A DNA stretch of 64,000 nt from positions 1-64,000 of the forward strand of contig JAHDVS010000002.1 of NCBI GenBank assembly GCA_023382435.1, given 5' to 3'. This document shows positions 20,407 to 34,886 of the stretch, in pieces. The DNA comes from Thermoleophilia bacterium (GTDB lineage Bacteria > Actinomycetota > Thermoleophilia > Gaiellales > Gaiellaceae). Each line of letters starts with the position of its first letter. Positions within the stretch are counted from its first letter, which is position 1. A program made the translations under genes and the position numbers. A model generated the notes under the pieces. The model was not told the origin of the DNA. It did not search any database and was given only the letters and a program-made list of their open reading frames with translations.

Positions 20407-20844
20407 ATGGCAGGGATCTTTCGGTCGTGCGTGATCGACGCGCCGGCGGAGGCCGTCTGGGCGCGCATTCGCGACTTCAACGGGCTGCCCGGGTGGCACC
20501 CGGCGATCGCGACGAGCGAGATCGAGGAGGGGCGTCCGTCCGACTCGGTCGGCTGCGTGCGCAGCTTCAGGCTCCAGGACGGCGGCCACATCCGGGAGCG
20601 GCTGCTCTCGCTCTCCGACCGCGACCGCTCGTACACCTACTCGATCCTCGAGGCGGCGATGCCGGTGAGCGACTACGTCGCCACGCTGAGCGTGACACCT
20701 GTCACCGACGGGCAGCGCTCCTACGTGCAGTGGACAGCCGAGTTCGTCTGCGACCCGACAGACGAGGCGGGGCTCGTCGAGCTCGTCGGCGACGGGGTGT
20801 TCCAGGGCGGGTTCGACGCCCTGAAAGCGAGCTTCAGCGGATGA
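20407..20844 (+). CDS. SRPBCC family protein (polyketide cyclase/dehydrase-like)
   Basis: A 145-residue START/SRPBCC helix-grip protein. It opens with SCVIDAPAEAVWARIRDFNGLPGWHPAI, the standard N-terminal signature of this family, and ends with the long C-terminal helix GVFQGGFDALKASF. Members bind hydrophobic ligands, and specific roles vary too much to predict. A strong GAGGAGG box lies just before the ATG. The 3' end overlaps the decayed hydantoinase gene on the other strand by 11 nt. Confidence 0.85.
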   Translation: MAGIFRSCVIDAPAEAVWARIRDFNGLPGWHPAIATSEIEEGRPSDSVGCVRSFRLQDGGHIRERLLSLSDRDRSYTYSILEAAMPVSDYVATLSVTPVTDGQRSYVQWTAEFVCDPTDEAGLVELVGDGVFQGGFDALKASFSG

Positions 20845-21298
20845 CGAGGCTCGTCGAGATCCGGCCGACGGCCTCCTCGTGCACGGGGTTCGCGATCGAC
20901 CAGAGCAGGCACACGCCGACCGCCTCGACGGAGCGGGCGGATAGGCTCCGGACGAGCTCGCGCGTCCGGGCCTCGTCGAGCGGCTCGACGATCTCGCCCC
21001 GCGCGCCGATTCGCTCTCGCACCTCGAACGTGAGCCGCCGCGGCACGTACGGTCCGGGTACGGCTCGCCGAAGTCGAACGGATTCGTCTTGCCGCCCTCG
21101 CGCCGCACGAGGACGTCGGGAAATCTCTCCGTCACGAGAAACGCGGTGCGGGCGGTCGTGCGCTCCAGGATCGCGTTCGTCGCGTGGTTCGTCGGGTACA
21201 CGAACAGGTCGGCCCGGGCGAGCAGGTCGGCCGCCGCGAGCCCGTCGAAGATCCGCGCTCAACGTCCCGCCGACGTCGGAGGTGATCCGGTAGCTCAT
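20834..21298 (-). pseudogene. Hydantoinase/oxoprolinase A (HyuA), deleted and frameshifted
   Basis: Pieces of a HyuA N-terminal domain lie in two frames. The start MSYRITSDVGGT is in one frame. IFDGLAAADLLARADLFVYP, TNHATNAILERTTARTAFLV and the following GGKTNPFDFGEPYP are in a second. The rest, PYVPRRLTFEVRERI to EEAVGRIS, is back in the first. Comparison with the family suggests an internal deletion at about 21262 and a 1-nt loss near 21052. The protein also stops after about 150 codons, whereas HyuA is about 680. The ATG overlaps the acyl-CoA synthetase stop as ATGA, so it was once the third gene of that operon. Confidence 0.8.
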
Positions 21299-23241
21299 GC
21301 GCCTCCCGGGTTCAGAGCCCGGATCGCGTCGAGCGACTCCGGGTTCTCGACGGACGAGAGATCGCCGGGGTTGTGCCCCACGGCGACCGCACGCACCGCG
21401 CGGCGGACGATCTTCGCGCTGCGCGTCTTCGGTAGAGCGGGCACGAACACGACCCGGTCGGGCCGGAAGGCCTTGCCGAGCGCCGCCGCGACCGCGGCTG
21501 CAACCTCGCCTGCGAGGACTTCGGACGCCTCGTGCCCGGGCACGAGCACGCAGTAGAGCCAGGCGACCTCACCCTTGACGTCGTGGGGGACGCCCACTGC
21601 GGCCGCCTCGAGCACGGCCTCGTGTCCGACGGCTGCGGACTCGAGCTCGGCCGGACCGACGCGCTTGCCCGCGATGTTGAGCGTGTCGTCGGAGCGCCCG
21701 TGCAGGTACCAGTAGCCGTCCTCGTCGATCGAGGCGAAGTCACCGTGCATCCAGAGGCCGGGAATCGTGCGCCAGTAGGCGTCGAGGTAGCGCTCCCGAT
21801 CGCGCCAGAAGCCCCGTGTCATCCCGGGCCAGGGCCTGCGACAGACGAGCTCGCCGACGTCCCCGCGGACGGGCGCCCCGCCGCGGTCGACGCAGTCGAT
21901 CGCCATGCCGAGGGCGGGGAAGCCGAGCGAGCACTCCTTGATCGGCTCGACGTGCGTGCAGGAGAGGAAGCAGGCGGCGACCTCGGTGCCGCCGGAGATG
22001 TTCACGATCGGGACGCGCCCGCCGCCCACGGTCTCGGCGAGCCAGCGGTACGGCCCGGGGTTCCAGGGCTCCCCGGTCGTGACGAGCGTCCGCAGCGCCG
22101 AGAGGTCGTGGCGGCGCACGATCTCCCCGCCGTGCGGGACGAGCGCCCGAACGAGCGTCGGGGAGAGCCCGATCGCGCCGGCGCGCTCGGAGGCCGCGAG
22201 CGCCCACAGGCGGTCGGGCTCGGGCCAGTCCGGGGCCCCTTCCATGAAGACGACGGTGCCGCCGAGCGCGTGCGCGCCGACCACCGTCCACGGCCCCATG
22301 ATCCAGCCCATGTCGGTGGCGAAGAGGAGCGGCTCGCCCGCCTCGAGATCGGCCTGGTAGGCGACCTCGGCGGCGATCTTGACAAGGAAGCCGCCCTGGA
22401 CGTGCACCGCCCCCTTCGGCTTGCCGGTCGTGCCGGACGTGTAGGCGATCAGGTAGGGGTGTTCCGCTTCGACCGCGAGCGGCGGCAGCGTGCCGGGGGA
22501 GCCGGCGACGGTCTCCTCCCAGTCGAGATCGCGCCCGGAGGTCATCGGGCAGTCGAGACCGAGCCGCCGCCACACGACGACGTGCTCGACGGACGGAGCG
22601 GACGCGAGCGCCTCGTCGAGGATCGCCTTGGCCGGGTGGGGCTTGCCGCGGCGGAGCGCCCCGTCGGCGCAGATCACGACCTTCACCTCGGCGTGCGCGA
22701 GGCGCTCGGCCACCGCGGGGGCGGCGAAGCCGGAGAAGATCGGCACCTGCACCGCGCCGAGGTGCGCGCAGGCGTGGCTGGCGATCGCCACCTCCGGAGA
22801 CATCGGGAGGTACAGACCGACCCGGTCGCCGGCCTCGACGCCGAGCGCGGCCAGGCCCTCCGCGAAGCGGGTGACCTCGCGCGACAGCTCCGCGTACGTG
22901 AGCCGCCCACGCTCCCCGGCCTCGCCGGCGAACACGCAGGCATCGACGGAGGCGAGCCCCGAGCGGGCGTGGCGGTGCACGCACGCCTCGGCGATGTTGA
23001 GGGTCACACCGCGAAACCACGTCGCCCACTCGATCCCGCCGGACTCGTCGAGGATGCGCTCCCATGGCGTCTCGAACGGCAGCTCAAGGTCCTCGACGAC
23101 CGCGGGCCAGAACCACTCGGGCTCCTCCTGCGAGCGCGCCACGAGCTCGCGGTAGCTCTCGATGCCGTGGCGGCGCATGAGCCGGGTCACGTTGGCGCGC
23201 TCGACGACCTCCGGGCTCGGGCTCCAGACGACGTCGGCCAT
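21295..23241 (-). CDS. Acetyl-CoA synthetase-like AMP-forming acyl-CoA ligase
   Basis: A 648-residue ANL-superfamily enzyme that activates a carboxylate with ATP and CoA. Core motifs: the phosphate-binding loop YTSGTTGKPKG, the A5 motif NISGGTEV, the A7-A8 hinge WYLHGRSDDTLNIAGKRVGPAELE and the catalytic Lys near the C-terminus in PKTRSAKIVRR. The N-terminal FDPP-like domain with WFRGVTLNIAEACVHRH is typical of acetyl/propionyl-CoA synthetases rather than long-chain enzymes. The start overlaps the stop of a beta-keto-acid cleavage enzyme remnant by one base. The substrate is probably a short organic acid, released or used together with that former partner. Confidence 0.9.
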   Translation of the reverse strand: MADVVWSPSPEVVERANVTRLMRRHGIESYRELVARSQEEPEWFWPAVVEDLELPFETPWERILDESGGIEWATWFRGVTLNIAEACVHRHARSGLASVDACVFAGEAGERGRLTYAELSREVTRFAEGLAALGVEAGDRVGLYLPMSPEVAIASHACAHLGAVQVPIFSGFAAPAVAERLAHAEVKVVICADGALRRGKPHPAKAILDEALASAPSVEHVVVWRRLGLDCPMTSGRDLDWEETVAGSPGTLPPLAVEAEHPYLIAYTSGTTGKPKGAVHVQGGFLVKIAAEVAYQADLEAGEPLLFATDMGWIMGPWTVVGAHALGGTVVFMEGAPDWPEPDRLWALAASERAGAIGLSPTLVRALVPHGGEIVRRHDLSALRTLVTTGEPWNPGPYRWLAETVGGGRVPIVNISGGTEVAACFLSCTHVEPIKECSLGFPALGMAIDCVDRGGAPVRGDVGELVCRRPWPGMTRGFWRDRERYLDAYWRTIPGLWMHGDFASIDEDGYWYLHGRSDDTLNIAGKRVGPAELESAAVGHEAVLEAAAVGVPHDVKGEVAWLYCVLVPGHEASEVLAGEVAAAVAAALGKAFRPDRVVFVPALPKTRSAKIVRRAVRAVAVGHNPGDLSSVENPESLDAIRALNPGGA

Positions 23242-23680
23242 CAGATCCTGGTCGCCTCCGCGCCCTTGAGCGCGAGCAGCCCGCGGGCCTCGTCGGGGGT
23301 TGCGGGCTCGAGCGACAGCTCGCGCAGGATCCGCACGATCTTCGCGACCTGGTCGGCGTTCGACTGCGCCAGTTCGCCCTTCGCGTAGTAGAGGCTGTCC
23401 TCGAGGCCGACCCGCACGTTGCCCCCCATGATCGCCCCGATCGTGACGAGACGCGTCTGGTGGCGACCGGCGCCGAGGATCGACCAGACGTAGGCGTCCC
23501 CGAACAGGCGATCCGCGGTCCGGCGCATGTGCAGGAGATGATCGGGCTCGGGACCGATGCCGCCGAGGATCCCGAACACCGTCTGCACGAACAGGGGCGG
23601 CTCGACGAGGCCGCGGTCGAGGAAGTGGGCGAGCGTGTACAGGTGCCCGACGTCGTAGCACTCGAACTCGAACCGGGTGC
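23241..23680 (-). pseudogene. Beta-keto acid cleavage enzyme (BKACE, DUF849), 5'-truncated
   Basis: The C-terminal half of a BKACE protein, beginning at TRFEFECYDVGHLYTLA and continuing through FVQTVFGILGGIGPEPDHL, GAIMGGNVRVGLEDSLYY and ADQVAKIVRILRELSLEP to a stop. The N-terminal half with the zinc-binding His residues is missing. BKACE proteins are usually about 270-310 residues, and only about 145 match here. The 19 codons upstream of the match are unrelated. Family members cleave beta-keto acids with acetyl-CoA. The break at about 23680 is the left edge of the segment carrying the GcvP-like genes. Confidence 0.8.
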
Positions 23681-24022
23681 CTAACGCGCCTACTCGCGAC
23701 AGACGCAACGAAGGACACGGAAGCGGATAGCCCACTCAGAAAATGCTCGTTTGCAGGTTTTTTTCTGGGCGGAACCGTCTCTGATGTAGCCCAATGTAGT
23801 GCGGCTCCTCGAGACCGCCGAAGCCGGGATAGGTACGCTCGGGCACGAAGCGCTCGCCATGCGCCGCCCCCTCGACGTCCACCTCGAAGCCTGCAACGAC
23901 CCTCAGACCGTCAACTCAAACGAGCCCGAAACCCTGCCACATCCGTGACGCGGGACAGAGAGACGGTCGCTCGGGGTTATCCTCGCCATGAGCGCGTACC
24001 CCCTTCACTCAGACTGGTCAGG
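23681..24022. other. Non-genic junction region at the left edge of the GcvP-like segment
   Basis: No intact gene. On the minus strand from 23915 one frame reads VDGLRVVAGFEVDVEGAAHG, then ERFVPERTYPGFGGLEEPHY, and stops near 23734. This looks like coding sequence, but I do not recognise the family; it may be another remnant. An imperfect hairpin with arms CTCAGAAAA (about 23735-23743) and TTTTCTGGG is followed on one side by a T-run. Base composition is lower in GC than the flanks. No tRNA, integrase or direct repeat was found. Confidence 0.4.
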
Positions 24023-25642
24023 TCAAGCAGAGGCTACGCCCTCCTCAGGCTTTGCCCCCGCTCGCGAGACGACAGCCGGCTCACCCGAACGGACCGCGGC
24101 GCGCTTCTTCGTGTGCGCTCGCCATGTCATGGCCCAATGTGCGGGGTCTTCCACGTGACGAGTGTCGGGCCGGTGGATGGCCTGGTTGTGGGGCGCCGAC
24201 TTGACGAGCTCGGGGTCCGAGTAGGCTTCTCTCGAGACTTCCTCGAGCACCGCGACCCAGTAGTCGAGGTCCTCCTTTGACCAGGCCTCACCGGCCTCGG
24301 GCGTGATCGGCTGAGGAATGAGCCAAGGCTCGTGGCTCAGCCAGGGCGCATCGATTCCGAAGTCCGTCATCCGATTCTGGACGTCGACCGCGGTGACGCC
24401 CGTGTCTTGCTCGAGGGTCTCCAGGCTGTAGCGAGTCATCTCCATGCGCCACTGAGCGTTCTCCGGGTTTGACTTCGTGACCCCCGGGATCTTGAGCATC
24501 CGTTGCTCCATGTAGTTGTTGGCGAGCACGGACAGATCGCGGGCCTCGTGGATACCCTCCGTGCCCATGGCCCGCAGCCAGGAGTACGCCTTGACGATCT
24601 GCGGCACGTTGCCCCAGAACTCGCGGACCTTCCCGATGCTGTCGGGGCGGTCGACGTCGAGCCTGTACTTCTCACCGTCGAAGTCGATGATTGGGTTGGG
24701 GAGGAATCTGGCGAGCTCGGCCGTGCAGCCGTACGCGCCAACTGCCGGCCCGAGTCCTCCTTTGGGTGCGCCGAAGGTCTTGTGGAGCATGTACATGCAC
24801 GCGTCGAAACCGAGCTCGCGCGCGCGGATCTTCCCCATGACGCCATTGGAGTTCGCGTGGTCCCAGAAGCACAGCCCACCGGCGTCGTGGACGATGTCTA
24901 CCCACTGTTTGATGTCGGGGTTGTAGATGCCCATATCGTCGGGATTGTTGACCATCAGTGCCGCCGTTCGATCGGACACAGCCGCTTTCAGCGCCTCCAC
25001 CGAGGGGTAGCCGTTCTCCTCGAGCATCAGGGTGACGACCTCGAAACCCGCCGCTGCGGCGGTCGCAGGACAGCACGGGTGTGTCTGGATGGTGACGATG
25101 ACCTGATCCCGTTGCTCGAGCTCGCCCCGCGCCGCGAGGTAGCCGCGAGTGACGCAGGCGTGGGTGTACGCGCCGTGTGCGCCACCCCCAGCCTGGAACG
25201 AGAACTGATCCATTCCGGACAGCTCGCGCAGCATGAGATCGCAGTGATAAATGGGCTCGAGAATGCCCTGGAGCGAGTCCTCGTCCTGGTACGGATGGAC
25301 CTCAGCGATCTCGGGCCGAGCGGCGATCAACTCGTTCAGTCTCGGGTTGTACTTCATCGTGCAGGTGCCGAAGAGACTGATGCCAATCATTCCGAGCGTC
25401 TCCTGGGAGAGATGGAGATAGTGCCGGAGCACCTCGTGCTCGGACAGCTCGGGCAGCGCGAGCCGGGTTGATCGGCGCACCCTCGCAGGGACGAGTTCCT
25501 CGGGGCTTCCAGCGAGACTGGCGACCGCCTGCTCGGGCTCGGCGAAGACGATACCCCGGCGGCCAGGCCGGCCCATTTCCATCACGACAGGCTCGTCCCA
25601 CACGGGGGCGTGGTACCTGCGAAGTCCAGGAATCGCAGTCAT
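24023..25642 (-). CDS. GcvPB-like PLP enzyme (glycine dehydrogenase P-protein subunit 2 family)
   Basis: A 539-residue member of the two-subunit P-protein family, the subunit that carries the PLP lysine. The motif MYMLHKTFGAPKGGLGPAVG contains the expected Lys in HKTF. The following loop differs from the usual HKTFSTPHGGGGPG. Other P-protein marks are SLFGTCTMKYNP, AEVHPYQDEDSLQG, THPCCPATAAAAGFEV and NNPDDMGIYN. A C-terminal extension of ~25 residues rich in Ala/Val is unusual. It overlaps the GcvPA-like gene by 4 nt. No H, T or L protein of the glycine cleavage system is present, so the reaction may not be canonical glycine cleavage. Confidence 0.82.
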   Translation of the reverse strand: MTAIPGLRRYHAPVWDEPVVMEMGRPGRRGIVFAEPEQAVASLAGSPEELVPARVRRSTRLALPELSEHEVLRHYLHLSQETLGMIGISLFGTCTMKYNPRLNELIAARPEIAEVHPYQDEDSLQGILEPIYHCDLMLRELSGMDQFSFQAGGGAHGAYTHACVTRGYLAARGELEQRDQVIVTIQTHPCCPATAAAAGFEVVTLMLEENGYPSVEALKAAVSDRTAALMVNNPDDMGIYNPDIKQWVDIVHDAGGLCFWDHANSNGVMGKIRARELGFDACMYMLHKTFGAPKGGLGPAVGAYGCTAELARFLPNPIIDFDGEKYRLDVDRPDSIGKVREFWGNVPQIVKAYSWLRAMGTEGIHEARDLSVLANNYMEQRMLKIPGVTKSNPENAQWRMEMTRYSLETLEQDTGVTAVDVQNRMTDFGIDAPWLSHEPWLIPQPITPEAGEAWSKEDLDYWVAVLEEVSREAYSDPELVKSAPHNQAIHRPDTRHVEDPAHWAMTWRAHTKKRAAVRSGEPAVVSRAGAKPEEGVASA

Positions 25643-27051
25643 CTCGAGATCACCTCGCTCAGCGCATCGACCAGCCGGTCGATGTCGTCCTGGGAATGAA
25701 CTTCGGTCACGCAGTACAGGGCGCTCTGTCCGAGCTCCGGAAAGTCCCTGGAGAGGTCCTTGCCGCCGAATATCCCGTGGCGCCGCAACGCCAGATTGAT
25801 GTCCGCCACCGTCTTCCCCGTGTCGTCGAAACCCACGACGAACTCCTTGAAGAACCCTGCTGGGAAGGCGATGCGCACGCCGTCGAGCTCATCCAGCCTC
25901 TTCGCGGCGTAGTGGCTGCGGGAGATGATCGAGCCCCCAGCTTCGGCGAAGCCCTCGGGCCCCATGAGCGCCATGTACGTCGCGCTCACGATCGCCCACA
26001 GATGGACCGTGTGACCGGTCCAGTCCTTCCCTTCCTCGCGGGCGTCGTAGGACGACTGCTCCAACAGAGTCATCGTGAAGCCACGCTCCCCAGTCTCGAC
26101 GGTTTCGCAGAGGCTGAGCAGGAGCGTCGGGTACTCCCGCACGTATCGCTCTTCGTCGCGAGCCGCGATGAACCCGCCCATGCTGCCCCCGCAGCTCAGG
26201 TGGAGACCCAGAGGCTGGATCGTCCCGACGGCGATGTCCGCGCCGTAGTCGGCAGGGGCGGCCAGCAGGCCGAGGGAGATCGGGTCGACACCGACGATCG
26301 TCTCGGCGCCGCAATCGTGTGCTAGGCGAGCGACCTCCGCGCCTTCCGTCTCGATCACACCCAGGTACGAGGGATTCTCGAGATAGACCGCCGCTGCGCT
26401 CTGAGACATCTTCGAAGCAAGATCCTCGAGATCGATCCGACCCGACTCGAAGTCGTAGTCGACCATGATCACGTTGATGTGGTTTCGCGTCTCGGCCGGC
26501 TCGCAGTAATTGCGGATCACGGACAGGCGCTCGGGATCGAGCGAGCGCGGGATCAGCACCTCACGGCGGCCGGTCATCCGAGCGGCCATCCGGATCGCGT
26601 GCCCGGCGGCGCAGCCCCAGCTGTAGACGGGCAGACCGACGCAGTCCATGTTCACGAGCTCACCGATCTGACTGCAGAATTCAAACAGCGCCTGATTCCG
26701 TCCGTGGTCGGACGACGTTGTTCCCCAGATGTTCGTGACGAACTCGCTCCGTCCGGCTATCTCGTCGCAGATGGCCGGGACGTGGTGTTGCCAGCAGCCG
26801 GCGCCCAGAAAGCTGAGATTCTCTTCGCAGGTCTCGTTCTTGGCAAGTGTCTGCAGGAGATGCCGGCGGAGGTCGAGCTCGGACATCAGTGCCTTTGGCA
26901 ACTTGAGATCACCCTTGATGCGATGGTCGGCGGGAATCTGCTCGTACAACTCATCGACCTCGGCGATCCCGAGCGCGTCGAGCATCTCCTGCTTCGTACG
27001 AGGTTCGGAATTCGGCATATAGGGATGGGCGATCGAACCAGGCAACGCCAT
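25639..27051 (-). CDS. GcvPA-like protein (glycine dehydrogenase P-protein subunit 1 family)
   Basis: A 470-residue partner of the GcvPB-like subunit. The N-terminus HPYMPNSEPRTKQEMLDALG and then IPADHRIKGDLKLP resembles the standard PA opening (YIPHTxxDxxxMLxxIG). SFLGAGCWQHHVPAICDEI, ENPSYLGVIE and the SCGGSMGGFIAARDEERYVR block are also PA-like. The region NIWGTTSSDHGRNQALFEFC replaces the usual TPYQPEVSQGTLQAIFEYQ, so the subunit is clearly divergent. The two subunits together should form the alpha2beta2 PLP decarboxylase. An AcoX-like gene lies 27 nt upstream in the same direction. Confidence 0.82.
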   Translation of the reverse strand: MALPGSIAHPYMPNSEPRTKQEMLDALGIAEVDELYEQIPADHRIKGDLKLPKALMSELDLRRHLLQTLAKNETCEENLSFLGAGCWQHHVPAICDEIAGRSEFVTNIWGTTSSDHGRNQALFEFCSQIGELVNMDCVGLPVYSWGCAAGHAIRMAARMTGRREVLIPRSLDPERLSVIRNYCEPAETRNHINVIMVDYDFESGRIDLEDLASKMSQSAAAVYLENPSYLGVIETEGAEVARLAHDCGAETIVGVDPISLGLLAAPADYGADIAVGTIQPLGLHLSCGGSMGGFIAARDEERYVREYPTLLLSLCETVETGERGFTMTLLEQSSYDAREEGKDWTGHTVHLWAIVSATYMALMGPEGFAEAGGSIISRSHYAAKRLDELDGVRIAFPAGFFKEFVVGFDDTGKTVADINLALRRHGIFGGKDLSRDFPELGQSALYCVTEVHSQDDIDRLVDALSEVISR

Positions 27052-27078
27052 GTCAAACCTCCGGAGACGTTGGTTGAT

Positions 27079-28233
27079 TCACGAGGCGGCTACCCGGATC
27101 ACGGCACTCTGGCGAAAACCCGTTCGTACGAAGACGTGGCCCGCGAGCATCCGGTCCGTTTCGGGATCGCCGGTATCGACCAGCAACCGGCGTTGGGGTA
27201 GTCCGGCGAGCTTGTTCAGGGTGGCGAGGACGATGATGTTGTCGCGACCGACCAGGCGGAGCACTTGCGGGCTGAGCTGCTGATTGCCGCGGCCGAAGAT
27301 GTACCCCTGCGTACCGATGACGGAGACGATGATCTTCGTTCGCGGGGAGCCAGCAAGGAGCTGGAGGATCTCGCTCTCGCTCAGGTCGTGCCCGACGAGC
27401 CGGCGGCCCTGGAGCGCGTCGACGCCGAGGAGAGTCTTGGCCAAGCCCATGCGCTCGAAGAGCCGGCGCGTCGTCGTTCCAGAGCCTACGACGTAGGCGG
27501 TCGCGTCGTCGAGCTCCGAGATGAGGTTAGTGGCGATCGCGTCGACCGCCGCGTCGTCCGACGCCGACCGAGTGCTCTTGGCGCCTTGCATGAGCCGACG
27601 CTCGCTGGGAACACGCAGGTAGCCATAAAGGCGGGCGGAAAGCCGATCGGCACGATACGCGTCCTCGTCGATATCCATTACCTCGGCGTGCCGCAAAGTC
27701 CGGCGTGCCGAGTCTGTCGACGCGTAACACGCTGCGAGTTCGCCAGCGGCGGTCGGCGTCGTCGCGAAGACGGCGGAGTGCATCTTGCACCCGGCAGGGA
27801 TGCCGAGCGCCGGGAGACGGCCGTCGACCGCGTCCATGATGTCCCGGGCCGTACCATCGCCGCCAGCAAAGAGGATCAAGTCGACCTGAGCGCCGACGAA
27901 CGCTCGAACAGCGGCGAGCGTGTCCTCCCGCGTGGTCGCCTCAGCACTCGCACCTCCTACTACCTCGGGGCTCAGCGCCGCTGCGCGAGCCGCCTCCGCG
28001 CCCATCGCGCCTGCATAGGTGATGACATCGACGGCGGGAGCAAGTCGCACCAGCGTCCGAAGCGCCTGAACGGCTCGGCACGCGGCTTCTGGGCGCGCGC
28101 CTAGCCTGCGCGCTAGTTCAAGTGCGTCAGGTCCGTCCGTTCCCTTGAGCCCAACCCGACCGCCCATACCCGCGACCGGGTTGACAACAAGTCCGATGCT
28201 TGCCCTCACCTCACCCGGCCAGCTGTGCGACAC
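27079..28233 (-). CDS. ATP-NAD kinase-fold protein, AcoX-like
   Basis: A 384-residue protein with the NAD-kinase/diacylglycerol-kinase nucleotide fold. GLVVNPVAGMGGRVGLKGTDG at the N-terminus, the kinase motif LILFAGGDGTARDI near residue 125 and LGIPAGCKMHSAVFATTP are typical of the AcoX family, found beside acetoin and other dehydrogenase operons. The C-terminal domain contains TKIIVSVIGTQGYIFGRGNQQ. Its exact role in such operons is not established in the literature known to me. It is upstream of, and co-directional with, the GcvP-like pair, so it probably belongs to the same pathway. The start is uncertain between GTG 28233 and GTG 28209. Confidence 0.8.
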   Translation of the reverse strand: MSHSWPGEVRASIGLVVNPVAGMGGRVGLKGTDGPDALELARRLGARPEAACRAVQALRTLVRLAPAVDVITYAGAMGAEAARAAALSPEVVGGASAEATTREDTLAAVRAFVGAQVDLILFAGGDGTARDIMDAVDGRLPALGIPAGCKMHSAVFATTPTAAGELAACYASTDSARRTLRHAEVMDIDEDAYRADRLSARLYGYLRVPSERRLMQGAKSTRSASDDAAVDAIATNLISELDDATAYVVGSGTTTRRLFERMGLAKTLLGVDALQGRRLVGHDLSESEILQLLAGSPRTKIIVSVIGTQGYIFGRGNQQLSPQVLRLVGRDNIIVLATLNKLAGLPQRRLLVDTGDPETDRMLAGHVFVRTGFRQSAVIRVAAS

Positions 28234-28449
28234 CGCCAGCGAGCCCCGGCTCAGAGAGGCCCCTCATGAGGCCAGCATGTTACCGCGGATGTCAAGGCCG
28301 GTCGCCAGGCGGCGAGAGCGCTCTCGACGAGAGCTGCTCTGTCACCACGAGAGCAGACGAAGGATGATGGCCTCCGCCGCTGCCCGATGCCTTCATGGCT
28401 ATGATGACATCCTCGCCGGTCGATCGTCCAGCTCGTCCGAGAACTACGA

Positions 28450-29391
28450 ATGGGGCCGCCCATGTTCAAGGGTGTCGATCATATCGGTATCGGTGTGGAC
28501 GACGTCGCCGTGGGAAAGCGATTCTACGGGGATCTCGGCTTCACGTCGGTCGTGTTCGAGTACCGCGGGGAGCTTCCCGGACTCGAGGCCCTCACCGGTC
28601 GTCGGCGAGCCGAGGCCGAGGTCGTGATGCTCCGGACCGAGCAGCCCGGCCCGCTCGGACTCGGACTCATCAAGCTCGTCCGTTTGCTCGACATGGACCC
28701 GCCGCCGATGCCGGAGGGCCTTGCCTGGGGTGAGATCGGCGTCTGTGAGGTCTGCGTTCACGCTCGCGACCAGGACAACGTGTTTCGCCATCTTGTGGGC
28801 GAGAGGAGCCACACTCCGCTGATGGAGCCGCTCGTGACTCCTCTGCCCCCGCACGACACAATCGCAAACCTGTCCTACGTGGCTGATCCGTGGGGTGGAA
28901 AAGTAGAACTGATCGAGTGGTCTGACCTCTGCAAGGGATGGCCGAGCGGGCAGCCGCACGTGGAAGGCGTGAACCACGTTGCCTTCGGCGTGTCCGACAT
29001 GGACCGCTCGCGCGACTTCTACGCCAGGCTCGGGTTCACGGAGCTCTTGTTCGACTACGACGGCTACTTCGGCCCGATGGCTCCCTGGTACACCGACGAG
29101 CCCCCGAAGCAGCGGATCGTGATGCTCACGAACCCGTACGGGGCCGGGATCGAGCCTGTCCAGCACTTCCCGCCCGCCAAGGACATGCGCGGCGAGTGGG
29201 GCCACCTCGGGCCAATGGATTTCGCCGTGGGCGTGACGAACCTCGGCAAGGCGTACGAGAGCCTCAAGACGGAGGGAGTGGAGTTCGTGTCTGAACCGCA
29301 GACCGTGGATGTCGGGACCGGCGAGTGGCAATACGCGTACGTACTCGACCCGGACGGCATCTACGTGTCGCTCGTCGAGGCTCGGTACTAG
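28450..29391 (+). CDS. Two-domain VOC (glyoxalase/dioxygenase superfamily) protein
   Basis: A 313-residue protein with two vicinal-oxygen-chelate modules. Module 1 (about 5-155) begins VDHIGIGVDDVAVGKRFYGD and ends WGGKVELIEW. Module 2 (about 175-310) begins VNHVAFGVSDMDRSRDFYAR and ends DPDGIYVSLVEA. The His and Glu positions (VDHI, VELIEW, VNHV, SLVE) fit metal coordination at least in one module. Family members include dioxygenases, lyases and isomerases. It diverges from the AcoX-GcvP-like operon over a 216-nt gap that likely holds both promoters. ATG 28462 is an alternative start. Confidence 0.82.
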   Translation: MGPPMFKGVDHIGIGVDDVAVGKRFYGDLGFTSVVFEYRGELPGLEALTGRRRAEAEVVMLRTEQPGPLGLGLIKLVRLLDMDPPPMPEGLAWGEIGVCEVCVHARDQDNVFRHLVGERSHTPLMEPLVTPLPPHDTIANLSYVADPWGGKVELIEWSDLCKGWPSGQPHVEGVNHVAFGVSDMDRSRDFYARLGFTELLFDYDGYFGPMAPWYTDEPPKQRIVMLTNPYGAGIEPVQHFPPAKDMRGEWGHLGPMDFAVGVTNLGKAYESLKTEGVEFVSEPQTVDVGTGEWQYAYVLDPDGIYVSLVEARY

Positions 29392-29576
29392 AAGGCAGGG
29401 GCGGAGGCCGGCGACCTACGGGCTAGCGGCTTCTCCCGTCGGCCGAGAGTGCCCCAGGGGGTCGCCGGGCGTTGGTGGCGATCGGCAAACAGGAGGCGCC
29501 AAGCGGTGCCGACTCAGGCCGACCGCATCGTTGCTTGCGAGGGCGAGTTCTTGATTTCCTTGGGCCCGTGTGTTCG

Positions 29577-29797
29577 ATCGGCGCTGCCGCGTTGCCGTGC
29601 ACGAGCGACGTGAAGTTGTTGACGCAGTCGATGAGCTCGTTGCCGTCCACGTCCCAGAGGCGCCAACCGGCGCCGCGGGCGAGCGCGAGCGGGTAGGGCG
29701 GGTAGAACGTCCCGGTGCGGGTGTCGCCGCCGGGCAGCAGGCCGCGGAGGCGTTCGGCCAGCTCGGCGGAGCGGGTGGTGGGGATGTCGTAGTCCAC
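29577..29797 (-). pseudogene. Class-III aminotransferase (GSA-aminomutase-like), only the first ~74 codons
   Basis: A GTG at 29797 with a strong GGAGGACC box begins a protein reading AELAERLRGLLPGGDTRTGT, then a glycine-rich GAGWRLWDVDGNELIDCVNNF stretch read in two pieces, then TSLVHGNA. This is the N-terminus of class-III PLP aminotransferases such as glutamate-1-semialdehyde aminomutase relatives. After HGNA the similarity ends and the frame runs into unrelated sequence. The PLP lysine and most of the enzyme are absent. The break at about 29580 is the right edge of the VOC/AcoX/GcvP segment. It lies just downstream of the GntR gene, which presumably regulated it. Confidence 0.8.
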
Positions 29798-29822
29798 GGT
29801 CGGTCCTCCTGTCGCGGCCGGG

Positions 29823-30491
29823 TCAGCTGTCGAACAGCTCGGAGTGCTCGCGCAGCGCGAGGCGCGTGCGCCTGATGTGAATGGCGAGGAGCCGCTCGGC
29901 GTCGACCGGGTCGCCGCGCTCGGCAGCATCGAGCAGGAGCCTGTGCTCCATGTGCCCGATCAGGAGCGACTCGGGGAACGAGGTCTGGAGATAGGCCAGC
30001 CGGTAGGGGCGCGCGACGTTCCAGAGGCGCGCGATCATCCGCCGAACCTCGGGAAGCGGCGCCCGCGAGAGCAGGGTGCGGTGGAAGTCGACGTCGATCG
30101 CGAGCCAGCCCGCGGTGTCCCCGGCGGCGGCGATCCGCTCCATCTCCTCGGCGTGCTCCCTGATCGCGCGGAGATCCTCGGCGGTCAGAAGCGGGACGCT
30201 CTCCGCGATCGCGGCCGGCTCGAGCCGCTCGCGCAGCCAGTAGATCTCGTCGAGCTCGGTCGCGTCGAGCCTGACCACCCGCGCACCCGCGTTCGGGACG
30301 ATCGTGACGAGACCCTCGTTCTGAAGCGCCCGCAGCGCTTCGCGCACCGGCAGCCGGCTGACGCCGAACCGCTCGGCGACGGCAGCCTGGCCGATCCGCT
30401 CGCCCGGCGCGAGGAATCCGTCGAGAATCTCGTTGCGGAGCTCGCGCGTGACGAGCTGGATCGCCTCGCCCCGGCTCGATGCCTGCTTCAT
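29823..30491 (-). CDS. GntR-family regulator, FadR/FCD subfamily
   Basis: A 222-residue one-component regulator. The N-terminal winged helix (about 8-75) contains ILDGFLAPGERIGQAAVAER and FGVSRLPVREALRALQNEGLV. The C-terminal FCD ligand domain (about 85-215) has the metal-binding Asp/His pattern (DVDFHRTLL, HMEHRLLLDA, HIRRTRLALREH). FCD regulators bind small organic acids. A direct repeat of ATTGGATCCT lies at and just upstream of its start codon and may be its operator. It precedes the truncated aminotransferase and is divergent in context from the GlcD-type oxidase. Confidence 0.88.
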   Translation of the reverse strand: MKQASSRGEAIQLVTRELRNEILDGFLAPGERIGQAAVAERFGVSRLPVREALRALQNEGLVTIVPNAGARVVRLDATELDEIYWLRERLEPAAIAESVPLLTAEDLRAIREHAEEMERIAAAGDTAGWLAIDVDFHRTLLSRAPLPEVRRMIARLWNVARPYRLAYLQTSFPESLLIGHMEHRLLLDAAERGDPVDAERLLAIHIRRTRLALREHSELFDS

Positions 30492-30631: not shown

Positions 30632-32032
30632 TCAGGGCCGCGGCAGCACTTTGCCCGGGTTCATCAGCCCATCGGGATCGAACGCTGCCTTCACGTGGCG
30701 CATCAGCGCGACGCCACCGTCCCCGTGCTCGAGCGGCAGGTACTTCGCCTTCCCGTAGCCGACACCGTGCTCGCCCGTGCACGTGCCGCCGAGCGCGATC
30801 GCCCGGCGCACCAGGCGATCGTGGATCTGCTCGACGCGCGCGAGCTCGCCCGGTTCGTCGGGGTCGATGAGGAAGCTGACGTGGAAGTTGCCGTCGCCGA
30901 CATGCCCGACGATGGGGGCGACGAGACCGGCCTCGTCGATCTCGCGACGGGTGGCTGAGATGCACTCGGCGAGTCGGGAGATCGGAACGCACACGTCCGT
31001 CGAGAAGCCCCTCGCCCCCGGGCGCAGCGCCCGGCTCGCTTCGTAGGCGCCGTGGCGGGCCTCCCAGAGCGCCCGCCGCTGCTCCTCGCTCGCCGCCCAG
31101 CGAAAGCCGCCGCCGCCCGACTCCGCGACCAGCTCGCCGACCGCCTGGGCCGCCTCGTCGACGCCGGCCCGGCTGCCGTGGAACTCGAGGAACAGCGTCG
31201 GCTGGAGCGGATGGCCGAGCCCGAAACGGCGCTCGATCGCGTCCATCTGCACCTCGTCCAGGAGCTCGATTCGCGCCACGGGCAGCCCGAGCTGGATCAC
31301 GTGGATCACACAGGCGACCGCACCGTCGAGGGTCGGGAACGAGCAGACCGCGGCTGAGGTCGCCTCCGGGGTCGGGTAGAGCCTGAGCGTGGCCTCGGTC
31401 ACGATCCCGAGCGTCCCCTCGGAGCCGATGAACAGGCGGGTGAGGTCGTAGCCGGCCGACGACTTGCGGGCGCGGGAGCGGGTGCGGACGACGTCGCCGG
31501 CGGCGGTGACGACGGTGAGCGAAAGGACGTTCTCGCGCATCGTCCCGTAGCGGACGGTGGTCGTGCCGGACGCGCCGGTCGCGATCATCCCGCCGATGGT
31601 CGCGTCCGCGCCGGGATCGACCGGGAAGAAGACCCCCTCCGGCCTGAGCCTGGCGTCGAGCTGCTTGCGCGTGACGCCCGCCTCCACGGTCACGTCGAGG
31701 TCGTCGACGGAGACGCGCACGATCCGGTTCAGCCCCGAGAGATCGACGCAGACGCCGCCCTCGAGCGCGGCGATCTGCCCCTCGAGCGACGTCCCCGCCC
31801 CGTAGGGGACGATCGGCACACGCTCGTCACGGCAGGCGGCAACGATCCGCGCCACCTCCGCGGTCGAACGCGGGAAGGCGACGAGGTCGGGCGGCGCCGG
31901 CGCGTGGTAGGACTCGCCCTCGCCGTGGCGTGCCCGCACCGCCTCGCTCGCGGAGACGCGCTCCGGCCCGAGCTCGGCCGCGAGTCGACTCGCGAGCCGC
32001 TCGATCGCGTTGGCGGGAGTCCGCTGGGCCAT
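30632..32032 (-). CDS. FAD-binding oxidase, GlcD / D-lactate dehydrogenase type
   Basis: A 466-residue flavoprotein. The N-terminal PCMH-type FAD-binding domain (about 45-220) shows VPIVPYGAGTSLEGQ, a PGADATIGGMIATGASG stretch and RLFIGSEGTLGIVTEA. The C-terminal FAD-linked oxidase domain has HVGDGNFHVSFLID and CTGEHGVGYGKAKYL. Such enzymes oxidise D-2-hydroxy acids (glycolate, D-lactate and analogues) and pass electrons to quinone or cytochrome. GlcE/GlcF partners are not present. An SDR and a 2-hydroxyacid dehydrogenase nearby suggest a 2-hydroxy-acid pathway. Confidence 0.9.
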   Translation of the reverse strand: MAQRTPANAIERLASRLAAELGPERVSASEAVRARHGEGESYHAPAPPDLVAFPRSTAEVARIVAACRDERVPIVPYGAGTSLEGQIAALEGGVCVDLSGLNRIVRVSVDDLDVTVEAGVTRKQLDARLRPEGVFFPVDPGADATIGGMIATGASGTTTVRYGTMRENVLSLTVVTAAGDVVRTRSRARKSSAGYDLTRLFIGSEGTLGIVTEATLRLYPTPEATSAAVCSFPTLDGAVACVIHVIQLGLPVARIELLDEVQMDAIERRFGLGHPLQPTLFLEFHGSRAGVDEAAQAVGELVAESGGGGFRWAASEEQRRALWEARHGAYEASRALRPGARGFSTDVCVPISRLAECISATRREIDEAGLVAPIVGHVGDGNFHVSFLIDPDEPGELARVEQIHDRLVRRAIALGGTCTGEHGVGYGKAKYLPLEHGDGGVALMRHVKAAFDPDGLMNPGKVLPRP

Positions 32033-32123
32033 GGCCCCGACTCTAGCTAGCGCGGCCTCGGCGTCGAGCGATAGGATCGCCCGGCCTTGCTACTTGCTGG
32101 CGCACCGGCCGCTGCCCGACGGC

Positions 32124-32900
32124 ATGGCTCACATGGGTGAGGCGGTCGCGCTCGTCACCGGCGGCTCGAGCGGGATCGGCGAGGCGACCGCGACGGCGTT
32201 CCTGGCGGCCGGCTACCGCGTTGCCATCTGCGCCCGCGACAGCGAGCGCCTGGCCGAGGCCGAGGGGAGGCTATCCAACGCCGGGCGGGTGCTCGCGCGC
32301 AGGTGCGACGTCTCGGATCCCGAGCAGGCATCCTCGCTCGTCGTTGCGACGATCGAGCGATTCGGGCGCCTGGACGCGGTCGTCAACGCACACGGGGTCG
32401 CCGGCGAACCGTCGCCGATCGAGGAGCTGGCGCCGTCCGACTGGAGCGAGCTGCTCGGGATCAACCTGCTCGGCCCGATCCACGTGACCAGGGCCGCGAT
32501 CCCCTCGCTGCGCTTGACGCGCGGGAGCATCGTCAACATCTCGTCGCTGAACGCCCACCGGGCCGAGCCCGGCATGGCACCGTATGGCGTCGCCAAGGCC
32601 GGGCTGGAATCGTTCACGCGCTACGCGGCGCACGAGCTCGCGGCCGACGGGATCCGCGTCAACGCGATCGCCCCCGGCTGGATCATGACGCCGATGGCGC
32701 AGCCCTTCCTCGAGCGGCTCGACCTCGTCGGCAAGCCGCTCGACTCGATGATGATGGGCCGCGTCGGAAAGCCGGAGGAGGTTGCAGCCGTGGCGGTGTT
32801 CCTGGCGAGCAGCGGGGCCTCGTACGTCACCGGCGAGACGGTCGTCGTCGACGGCGGCAGGCTCTCCAAGCTCGAGCCCCTGCGCGAACGGATCGAGTAG
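32124..32900 (+). CDS. Short-chain dehydrogenase/reductase
   Basis: A classical SDR of about 258 residues. The cofactor motif TGGSSGIG is at about residue 13, then NAHGV, the catalytic Ser in IVNISSLNAH and the YxxxK motif YGVAK. The C-terminus YVTGETVVVDGGRL is standard. The first ATG (32124) and ATG 32133 are both possible starts; neither has a clear Shine-Dalgarno box. It is transcribed toward the 2-hydroxyacid dehydrogenase and divergently from the GlcD-type oxidase. The substrate is unknown. Confidence 0.87.
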   Translation: MAHMGEAVALVTGGSSGIGEATATAFLAAGYRVAICARDSERLAEAEGRLSNAGRVLARRCDVSDPEQASSLVVATIERFGRLDAVVNAHGVAGEPSPIEELAPSDWSELLGINLLGPIHVTRAAIPSLRLTRGSIVNISSLNAHRAEPGMAPYGVAKAGLESFTRYAAHELAADGIRVNAIAPGWIMTPMAQPFLERLDLVGKPLDSMMMGRVGKPEEVAAVAVFLASSGASYVTGETVVVDGGRLSKLEPLRERIE

Positions 32901-32943
32901 CGCTCGCCGGCGAGAACGTGCTCGAGCACGGCGCGCCTAGCCC

Positions 32944-33915
32944 CTACACGGGGAGATCGGGTGGACTGCCTGGCTCGACGACGGAGCCCGGGTGCCTGCC
33001 TGAGAGCGCCGCGACGAGGTTCTCGACCGCGGTTCGCCGCAGGTCCTCGAGCGACTCCTCCGAGTAATAGCCCATGTGCGGAGTCACGACCACGTTGTCC
33101 ATGACCAGGAGCGGCTCGTCGGGCGCGGGTGGCTCCGACGGCAGCACGTCGAGGCCGGCGCCGGCGAGATGACCGTCGCGGAGGGCCTCGACGAGGGCGT
33201 CGTGGTCGACGACCGCGCCACGGCTCGCGTTGACGAGCACGGCACCCGGGCGCAGACGGCGCAACTCCTCCCGGCCGATCAGTCCCGCCGTCTCGGCGGT
33301 CAGCGGCACGTGCAGGCAGAGGACGTCACAGCTCGCGAGCACCTCGTCGAGCCGGCAGAGCCGAACGTTCGCGCTCGCGACCAGCGGATCGTGCGCGACG
33401 ACCGTCATCCCGAACGCCCGCGCCCGCTCGGCCACCCCGCGCCCGATCGCCCCGAAACCGACGAGGCCGAGCGTCCGGCCCGCGAGTCGCCGAACGGGAC
33501 GCAGGCCGTCGAGGTCCCAGCTTCCGCAGCGGGCGATTGCCTCCGCGGCTCGCAGCTTGCGCCAGACGGCGAGGAGGAGCGCCAGGGTGTGGTCGGCCAC
33601 CTCGGCGGCGCAGTAGTGGGGCACGTTCGTGACGACGATCCCGCGCACGGCCGCCGCCGCGAGGTCGACGACGTCCGTGCCGGCAGCGGCGACGCTGATC
33701 GCGCGGCAGCGCTCCATGCGCGCGAGCCGCTCCGCGTCGAAGGTGGTGAGGGTCTCCGTCAGCACGCCCACGGCCTCCCGCAGGTGCGCGTCGAGGGCCG
33801 TCTCGGAAGCGTGCCGGGCGTCGAGCAGAGTCGCGCCGATCCCGGCGAGCGCGGCCGCCTCGAGCTCGAGGTCAGTCGGGATCCCGTAGCCCGTGAGGAC
33901 GACGAGTCGAGACAC
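32944..33915 (-). CDS. D-isomer-specific 2-hydroxyacid dehydrogenase
   Basis: A 323-residue NAD-dependent dehydrogenase interconverting 2-hydroxy and 2-keto acids. The Rossmann motif is LVGFGAIGRGVAERA. The catalytic residues are visible as Arg in VNASRGAVVD, Glu in LDVLPSEPP and His in VVTPHMGYY. The GTG start at 33915 lies one nucleotide after the stop of the upstream SDR, so the two are co-transcribed. It is the last gene of the HyuA-HyuB-zinc ribbon-SDR-2HADH run on the minus strand. Confidence 0.9.
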   Translation of the reverse strand: MSRLVVLTGYGIPTDLELEAAALAGIGATLLDARHASETALDAHLREAVGVLTETLTTFDAERLARMERCRAISVAAAGTDVVDLAAAAVRGIVVTNVPHYCAAEVADHTLALLLAVWRKLRAAEAIARCGSWDLDGLRPVRRLAGRTLGLVGFGAIGRGVAERARAFGMTVVAHDPLVASANVRLCRLDEVLASCDVLCLHVPLTAETAGLIGREELRRLRPGAVLVNASRGAVVDHDALVEALRDGHLAGAGLDVLPSEPPAPDEPLLVMDNVVVTPHMGYYSEESLEDLRRTAVENLVAALSGRHPGSVVEPGSPPDLPV

Positions 33916-33916
33916 G

Positions 33917-34684
33917 CTACGCCGCCGTGTAGCCGCCGTCGACCGAGATCGACGCGCCGGTGACCGAGCCTGACTCGTCGGAGGCGAGGTAGACGACGGC
34001 GCTCGCGACATCCTCGGGATCGGAGAACCGCCCGAGCGGGATCGCCCCCTCGTGGCGGCGGCGAAACGCGTCCGGCTCGGGCTGCTCCTCGATCCAGAGC
34101 GTGACCATCGGGGTCTCGGTCAAGCCCGGTGCGACCGCGTTCACCCGGATGCCGAGCGGAGCGAGCTCTACCGCCGCTCCGAACGTGAGGCTCTGGAGGG
34201 CCCCCTTCGACGCGCCGTAGACCGCCGAGCCGGGTAGCCCGACCAGCGCGAGGCGGGATGTCACGTTGACGATCGAGCCGCCCCGTCTCCCCATCGCCCG
34301 CGCGCAGGCCTGGAGCATCGAGAGCGCACCGAAGACGTTGACGTCGAAGATGCGACGCGCCTCCTCGAGCGTCGTCTCGAGGAGCGGGATGCCCGACAGA
34401 TCGAGGCCGGCGTTGTTGACGAGTATGTCGAGGGCGCCGTGGCGCCTGAGCGTCTCGGCGACGGCGCGATCGGCCGTCGCCGGATCTCCGACATCGCCCT
34501 GGACGAGCGAGGCGACCTCGGCACCGAGCTCGGCGACGAGCCGCTCGCCGGGCTCGGCCCGCCGCGCGACGAGGACGACGCGTGCACCCTGACGGACGAA
34601 GGCGTGCGAGACCGCGTACCCGATCCCCTCGGTCGCGCCGGTGACGATCGCCGTCTTCCCGGCGAGGCGTCCCGGCCGGCTCAC
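33917..34684 (-). CDS. Short-chain dehydrogenase/reductase
   Basis: A classical SDR of about 255 residues. It shows TGATEGIG in the cofactor site, LVNNAG, the catalytic VNVTSRLAL serine and YGASK, and ends SVTGASISVDGGYTA. The GTG at 34684 is chosen because it lies 4 nt after the zinc-ribbon gene stop and gives a standard N-terminus (GRLAGKTAIVTG). It is part of the minus-strand hydantoinase gene run. The substrate is not predictable. Confidence 0.88.
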   Translation of the reverse strand: MSRPGRLAGKTAIVTGATEGIGYAVSHAFVRQGARVVLVARRAEPGERLVAELGAEVASLVQGDVGDPATADRAVAETLRRHGALDILVNNAGLDLSGIPLLETTLEEARRIFDVNVFGALSMLQACARAMGRRGGSIVNVTSRLALVGLPGSAVYGASKGALQSLTFGAAVELAPLGIRVNAVAPGLTETPMVTLWIEEQPEPDAFRRRHEGAIPLGRFSDPEDVASAVVYLASDESGSVTGASISVDGGYTAA

Positions 34685-34688
34685 GGGA

Positions 34689-34886
34689 TCACCGGACGAT
34701 CGACTCCTCCCAGAGCGCCGCCTCGCCGTATTTCGGCACCTTGTAGCTATCGAAGACCTCGATGCACCTCTCCGAGCAGAAGAGGAGCGGGTGACCGAGC
34801 CGCTCGACCCTGATGCCACCGACGCTGACGAGCTTCCCGCAGGAGCCGCAGTGCGGGAGCTCGTTCACCTCCCTATAGACCGGCAC
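34689..34886 (-). CDS. Small zinc-ribbon (TRASH-like) protein linked to HyuAB
   Basis: A 65-residue protein with a four-cysteine pattern: HCGSCGKL near the N-terminus and LLFCSERCIEVF about 20 residues later. This CxxC...CxxxC spacing with FCSxxC is characteristic of TRASH/YHS-like metal-binding ribbons. The rest (VPKYGEAALWEE) is a short acidic tail. It overlaps the end of hyuB by 14 nt and precedes the SDR, so it is translated with the HyuAB pair. Acetone carboxylases, which share the HyuA/HyuB folds, carry a third small zinc-containing subunit. An analogous role here is plausible but unproven. Confidence 0.72.
   Translation of the reverse strand: MPVYREVNELPHCGSCGKLVSVGGIRVERLGHPLLFCSERCIEVFDSYKVPKYGEAALWEESIVR

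What the first reader, a model, noticed from the sequence alone, without database searches (positions are those of the whole stretch)
24023..29391. Orphan GcvPA/GcvPB-like pair with AcoX-like and two-domain VOC genes: candidate undescribed PLP pathway
Seen: two subunits related to the glycine-cleavage P-protein (PLP Lys in HKTF kept, neighbouring loops changed), overlapping by 4 nt. An NAD-kinase-fold AcoX-like gene lies upstream and a two-domain VOC gene is divergent. Known: canonical P-protein needs H, T and L proteins, and AcoX has no settled function. Inferred: the pair decarboxylates or rearranges a different amino acid, with the VOC enzyme acting on the product. No H-protein gene is in the window.
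Basis: partly seen in the sequence, partly recalled or inferred. Interest (0 to 1): 0.75.

Follow-up and report, generated by a model that had tools for sequence, protein, structure and literature searches.

The report
Kinase-partnered glycine-decarboxylase look-alike gene trio
Three neighbouring genes, two of them routinely annotated as glycine-cleavage enzyme subunits and one a kinase-like gene, turn out to be a separate, rare but widely scattered trio that has lost the parts needed to dock with the glycine-cleavage machinery and probably breaks down some other amino compound.

Summary
Window 24023-28233(-) carries a kinase-fold gene, a GcvPA-like gene and a GcvPB-like gene. The last two overlap by 4 nt and the PLP lysine motif HKTF is kept. 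They are not the genome's glycine decarboxylase: a standard T-H-PA-PB set lies on another contig. Both subunits fall in clades separate from canonical P-protein (support 100). The family spans many phyla, including archaea. Residues invariant in the canonical set are replaced. The two basic residues modelled as contacting H-protein are both basic in 22/22 canonical PA but in 1/90 family PA. The kinase-family gene is the real partner: in 397 actinobacterial genomes, PB-family and kinase occur in exactly the same three. One Firmicutes MAG has two such modules and no detectable H, T or canonical P. The VOC gene is not part of the core (only two other loci). Anaerobe-type copies sit in SDR-SDR-PA-PB-kinase operons; aerobe-type copies sit with amino-acid permeases, amine oxidases, aminotransferases or CoA ligases. 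Best reading: an H-protein-independent PLP lyase or decarboxylase for a substrate other than glycine, obligately coupled to a small-molecule-kinase-fold partner, in amine/amino-acid catabolism. The substrate is unknown. NCBI models call both subunits true GcvP, so misannotation is systematic.

The parts
24023..25642 (-). GcvPB-like PLP subunit (539 aa), HKTF PLP lysine K288
   Evidence: PLP residues kept, family-specific residues T93, P189, D236, G267, A303, R404, H437, T447; separate clade from canonical PB; fold matches 1wyt_B
25639..27051 (-). GcvPA-like subunit (470 aa), overlaps PB by 4 nt
   Evidence: separate clade, support 100; H-protein contact positions are A337 and E340 instead of R and K
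27079..28233 (-). NAD-kinase/DAG-kinase-fold partner ('AcoX-like'), GGDGT motif 124-128
   Evidence: Pfam NAD_kinase, perfect co-occurrence with the PA/PB family, motif invariant in 67 relatives; no close PDB structure
28450..29391 (+). two-domain VOC-fold protein, divergent; accessory at most
   Evidence: relatives near the module only in L051 and L066
21295..23241 (-). AMP-binding CoA ligase (ACS-like) downstream on the same strand; possible pathway member
   Evidence: acetate/acetoacetate-CoA-ligase-like, below equivalog cut-offs; unrelated acyl-CoA ligases also sit beside other modules

Best explanation
The core is a three-gene module, kinase-PA-PB. PA and PB form a P-protein-type heteromer with one PLP site that no longer passes an aminomethyl group to lipoyl-H-protein. 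It acts on an amino compound other than glycine, most likely a hydroxylated amino acid or amino alcohol taken up by amino-acid permeases or ABC transporters. SDR dehydrogenases adjust the hydroxyl/keto state of the substrate in many versions. The kinase-fold partner primes the substrate by phosphorylation (my preferred version), and the PLP heteromer then breaks a C-C or C-O bond or decarboxylates it. Downstream oxidases, aminotransferases or CoA ligases process the fragments. Shown here: separate clade, altered active and docking residues, obligate kinase association, SDR/amine-catabolism context, one genome without detectable H/T. Inferred: heteromer, loss of H-protein docking, substrate class, phosphorylation, bond broken.
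For: Trees: PB family apart from canonical on a 1.9-length branch with support 100; PA family one clade, support 100, branch 2.3. Fixed replacements at positions invariant in canonical. H-docking residues R373/K376 of human GLDC (docking model and NKH mutations, PMC7259800) map to A337/E340; both basic in 22/22 canonical and 1/90 family. The kinase-family gene is within 6 kb in 46 of 54 loci with enough flank. Co-occurrence is perfect in 397 genomes (3/3; p 1e-5 without own), and 16/16 named genomes have it. Each of the 6 proteobacterial genomes checked has exactly one further NAD_kinase_C gene besides this one; the window genome has two others, on C18 and C31. Firmicutes MAG G502 has two modules and no detectable H, T or canonical P. 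In the anaerobe type, 37 of 72 flanking proteins are SDRs. APC permease, SDR, CoA ligase and Cu amine oxidase neighbours occur in annotated plasmids.
Against: No activity was shown. Most genomes with the module also encode H-protein (22 of 24 checked), so H could in principle serve in trans. [quoted passage not shown] Neighbour genes vary widely between lineages, so no single substrate is implied. G502 is a MAG of unknown completeness, and H, T and P usually cluster, so one missing contig could explain their absence.
Confidence: 0.55

Rival explanations
1. PA/PB is a plain alpha-amino-acid decarboxylase: the canonical first half-reaction is kept, the carbanion is protonated instead of being passed to lipoate, and the amine goes to amine oxidase, aminotransferase or DAO. 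The kinase-fold protein is a helper that keeps the enzyme or cofactor active.
For: Catalytic PLP residues are kept. Copper amine oxidase lies beside the module in Gemmobacter and Pseudomonas. Class-III aminotransferases, SDRs and DAO are the commonest aerobe-type neighbours. Acetoin AcoX is an essential helper without known kinase activity.
Against: Does not explain the tandem SDRs of the anaerobe type, nor why a kinase with an intact GGDGT motif is so strictly linked.
Confidence: 0.25
2. PA/PB cleaves 2-amino-3-oxo acids made by the SDRs (retro-Claisen type, like 2-amino-3-ketobutyrate CoA ligase) into glycine or a substituted glycine plus an acyl unit, which the CoA ligase activates.
For: Tandem SDRs, CoA ligases next to the module, and sarcosine reductase GrdG/GrdF genes near one module.
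Against: No CoA-binding feature was identified, and many loci have no CoA ligase or glycine-using enzyme nearby.
Confidence: 0.15
3. It is a second, slightly diverged glycine decarboxylase that uses the genome's H, T and L proteins in trans.
For: NCBIfam scores both subunits above the GcvPA/GcvPB cut-offs. H-protein is present in 22 of 24 genomes checked.
Against: Separate clade, docking residues lost, active-site replacements fixed, a canonical set also present in the window's genome, a genome with the module but no detectable H or T, and the strict kinase link.
Confidence: 0.07

Closest known systems
Glycine cleavage P-protein, heteromeric GcvPA/GcvPB (1wyt, 9a73)
   Same: Fold, two-subunit layout, PLP lysine HKTF and core PLP residues
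   Different: Separate clade; PA TPYQPE and NITT loops and PB HG(T/S)N, NPxT and HGGGGPG loops replaced; H-docking basic pair lost; not with gcvH/gcvT; linked to a kinase-family gene
AcoX of acetoin operons (NAD-kinase family, unknown function)
   Same: Kinase-fold family; encoded beside a C-C-cleaving cofactor enzyme; reported essential for acetoin dehydrogenase in E. coli (PMC10943186)
   Different: Partner here is a PLP enzyme; no acetoin dehydrogenase genes in the module; no acetoin AcoX sequence available here for a direct comparison
Cysteine desulfurase SufS and other class-V PLP enzymes
   Same: Next most similar fold after P-proteins
   Different: Homodimers with a catalytic Cys; no PA-like partner
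Kinase plus PLP-lyase pairs (for example hydroxylysine kinase with phospholyase; recalled, not tested)
   Same: Works-like analogy: a kinase strictly paired with a PLP enzyme
   Different: Different protein families on both sides

Membership tests
Glycine cleavage P-protein (GcvPA/GcvPB) | Sequence above NCBIfam equivalog cut-offs | tested here: met
   PB 502.8 vs 441 bits, PA 450.2 vs 364 bits; the cut-offs evidently do not separate this family
Glycine cleavage P-protein (GcvPA/GcvPB) | PLP-binding lysine and core fold | tested here: met
   H287-K288-T289-F290 kept; best PDB fold hits are P-proteins
Glycine cleavage P-protein (GcvPA/GcvPB) | Placement within the canonical clade | tested here: not met
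Glycine cleavage P-protein (GcvPA/GcvPB) | Conserved H-protein contact residues (R373/K376 of human GLDC) | tested here: not met
   Both basic in 1/90 family vs 22/22 canonical; the interface itself is a published docking model
Glycine cleavage P-protein (GcvPA/GcvPB) | Linked gcvH/gcvT genes | tested here: not met
   The only full H gene is on C56 beside canonical PA/PB
Glycine cleavage P-protein (GcvPA/GcvPB) | Glycine decarboxylation with lipoyl-H-protein | not testable with these tools
   Needs enzyme assay
AcoX (acetoin catabolism protein X) | NAD-kinase-family domains | tested here: met
   PF01513 and PF20143
AcoX (acetoin catabolism protein X) | Linked to acetoin dehydrogenase acoABC | tested here: not met
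   None seen beside any examined module
AcoX (acetoin catabolism protein X) | Sequence orthology with acetoin-operon AcoX | not tested
   No acetoin-operon AcoX sequence was obtained; the Pseudomonas genomes searched held only one other NAD_kinase_C protein each besides this one

The most novel reading that the evidence does not exclude
A new catabolic enzyme system: a glycine-decarboxylase-derived PLP heteromer that has dispensed with the lipoyl carrier and instead works on a substrate primed by a dedicated kinase of the NAD-kinase/DAG-kinase superfamily, spread by horizontal transfer across bacteria and archaea and hidden under GcvPA/GcvPB annotations.
Probability: 0.4. Interest if true: 0.8.

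Novelty: new variant of a known kind. Interest (0 to 1): 0.6.

Why it matters
It would be a P-protein lineage that works without H-protein, and it gives the poorly understood AcoX/ATP-NAD-kinase family a strict enzymatic partner, so its function becomes testable. NCBI models name both subunits as true glycine dehydrogenase, so glycine-cleavage and reductive-glycine-pathway predictions from genomes may be wrong where only this pair is present. The plasmid-borne copies in well-known genera (Rhodococcus, Sphingomonas, Paracoccus, Gemmobacter) are genetically tractable starting points.

Tried and rejected
(1) A vicinal Cys-Cys at PB 190-191 as an internal replacement for lipoate: rejected, Cys191 is in 2 of 85 sequences. 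(2) VOC as part of the core: rejected, two other loci only. (3) H-independence argued from absence of gcvH across genomes: mostly not usable, since 22 of 24 have H; only G502 is informative. (4) Literature on the module: ten full-text searches gave no description of a GcvPA/GcvPB-like pair with an ATP-NAD kinase. The library holds open-licence papers only. (5) Substrate from neighbours: amine oxidase, DAO/SoxA-like, DHDPS, aminotransferase, creatininase/M20 and methylamine methyltransferase genes all recur in parts of the family; no single pathway fits all, so I did not name a substrate. (6) Kinase fold search: only weak DAG-kinase hits (best E 9e-4, TM 0.21). (7) The two primary P-protein structure papers are not in the held library.

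Full report
Check of the observation. The four ORFs, the 4-nt overlap, the HKTF lysine and the lack of an H-protein gene in the window are all confirmed. The window lies in a 2.73 Mb actinobacterial MAG, 96% complete, with nearest family members in Thermoleophilia. Its ordinary glycine cleavage genes T, H, PA and PB are clustered on contig C56. Two more divergent pairs lie on C31 and C62.

Relationship to P-protein. Family PA and PB from other genomes are roughly 42-72% identical to the window's, while canonical PA/PB from relatives are 29-40%. In the PB tree 80 family rows form one side of a branch with support 100 and length 1.9. In the PA tree 87 family rows do so, support 100, length 2.3. 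Within the family there is an 'aerobe' clade (59 PB rows, with the window) and a more basal, mostly anaerobe-derived set.

Active site and docking. Core PLP residues are shared, but many positions invariant in canonical proteins are fixed to something else. In PB these are S to T93, G to P189, T to D236, A to G267, P to A303, V to R404, Y to H437 and M to T447. In PA the TPYQPE loop loses a residue and the SNITTN loop becomes DWTG. In human GLDC, R373 and K376 were modelled to contact H-protein and carry disease mutations, and Y161/Y164 and T894 are listed as active-site residues (PMC7259800). The mapping uses the alignments. R373/K376 correspond to window A337/E340. Both are basic in 22 of 22 canonical but 1 of 90 family sequences. 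Y164 is deleted, Y161 is I108, and T894 aligns with W434. The single-chain PB model is low-confidence (pLDDT below 50) at 81-93 and 292-298, the segments leading into GTCTMK and just after HKTF, as expected if PA completes the site (inference). Its best solved matches are P-proteins, then SufS.

The kinase-family partner. It is within 6 kb of PA in 46 of 54 loci with enough flank, usually on the same strand. In 397 genomes spread over the phylum, the PB family and the kinase family are each found in exactly three, the same three. Among 61 closer relatives the kinase occurs in nine of the ten genomes with family PB and nowhere else; the tenth has only a contig-edge PB fragment. All 16 named genomes tested have it. 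Each of the 6 proteobacterial genomes checked has exactly one further NAD_kinase_C gene besides this one; the window genome has two others, on C18 and on C31 beside the second PA/PB pair. GGDGT is invariant. The predicted fold has only weak DAG-kinase matches in the PDB. Distant relatives also exist alone in Aeromonas, Pseudoalteromonas and archaea, and beside another PLP enzyme in Peptoclostridium. Acetoin AcoX, of the same broad family, has no known activity yet is required for acetoin dehydrogenase (PMC10943186).

Context. Anaerobe-type operons are typically SDR-SDR-PA-PB-kinase, and 37 of 72 flanking proteins are SDRs. One also has sarcosine reductase genes nearby and one lies beside methylamine methyltransferases. 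Aerobe-type neighbours include APC permease, SDR, acyl-CoA ligase, copper amine oxidase, class-III aminotransferase, DAO and DHDPS genes. The haloarchaeon Natronosalvus carries PA/PB and the kinase on one plasmid about 57 kb apart. The VOC gene recurs only in L051 and L066.

H-protein independence. Most genomes with the module also have H-protein. Firmicutes MAG G502 has two modules, no H, no T, and P-type matches only at the divergent level. Its completeness is unknown.

Verdict. The family is a divergent P-protein lineage bound to a kinase-fold partner. That it does not use H-protein is strongly suggested. The reaction and substrate are inferred only; I favour a kinase-primed PLP lyase, with a plain decarboxylase plus helper as the main rival.

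Noticed in passing
window 23241-23735 (-), 29423-29929 (-), 20834-21298 (-): Remnants beside the module: the C-terminal half of a BKACE enzyme (profile 158-308 of 310), and by eye a class-III aminotransferase start and a hydantoinase-A start. The surroundings look decayed or rearranged.
   Followed up: partly
window 30632-36669: A catabolic gene stretch: FAD-linked oxidase, two SDRs, D-2-hydroxyacid dehydrogenase and hydantoinase B-like gene; apart from SDRs in general, none recurs in the other module loci at useful identity.
   Followed up: partly
L192 4573-5655 (-): A dimethylamine methyltransferase gene ends in TAG with the frame open for about 120 codons beyond it, as for pyrrolysine, in an actinobacterial MAG beside MttB and the PB-like gene.
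   Followed up: partly
L108 12053-13102 (+): A sarcosine/glycine reductase component B gene ends in TGA with the frame continuing, as for selenocysteine, near the module.
   Followed up: partly
L210 8992-11068 (+): In Peptoclostridium acidaminophilum the same kinase family overlaps a class I/II PLP enzyme gene, a second kinase-PLP pairing.
   Followed up: no
L039 (G000 contig C62): A third, long-branched PA/PB pair in the same genome, with no kinase gene found on its 8.6 kb contig.
   Followed up: no
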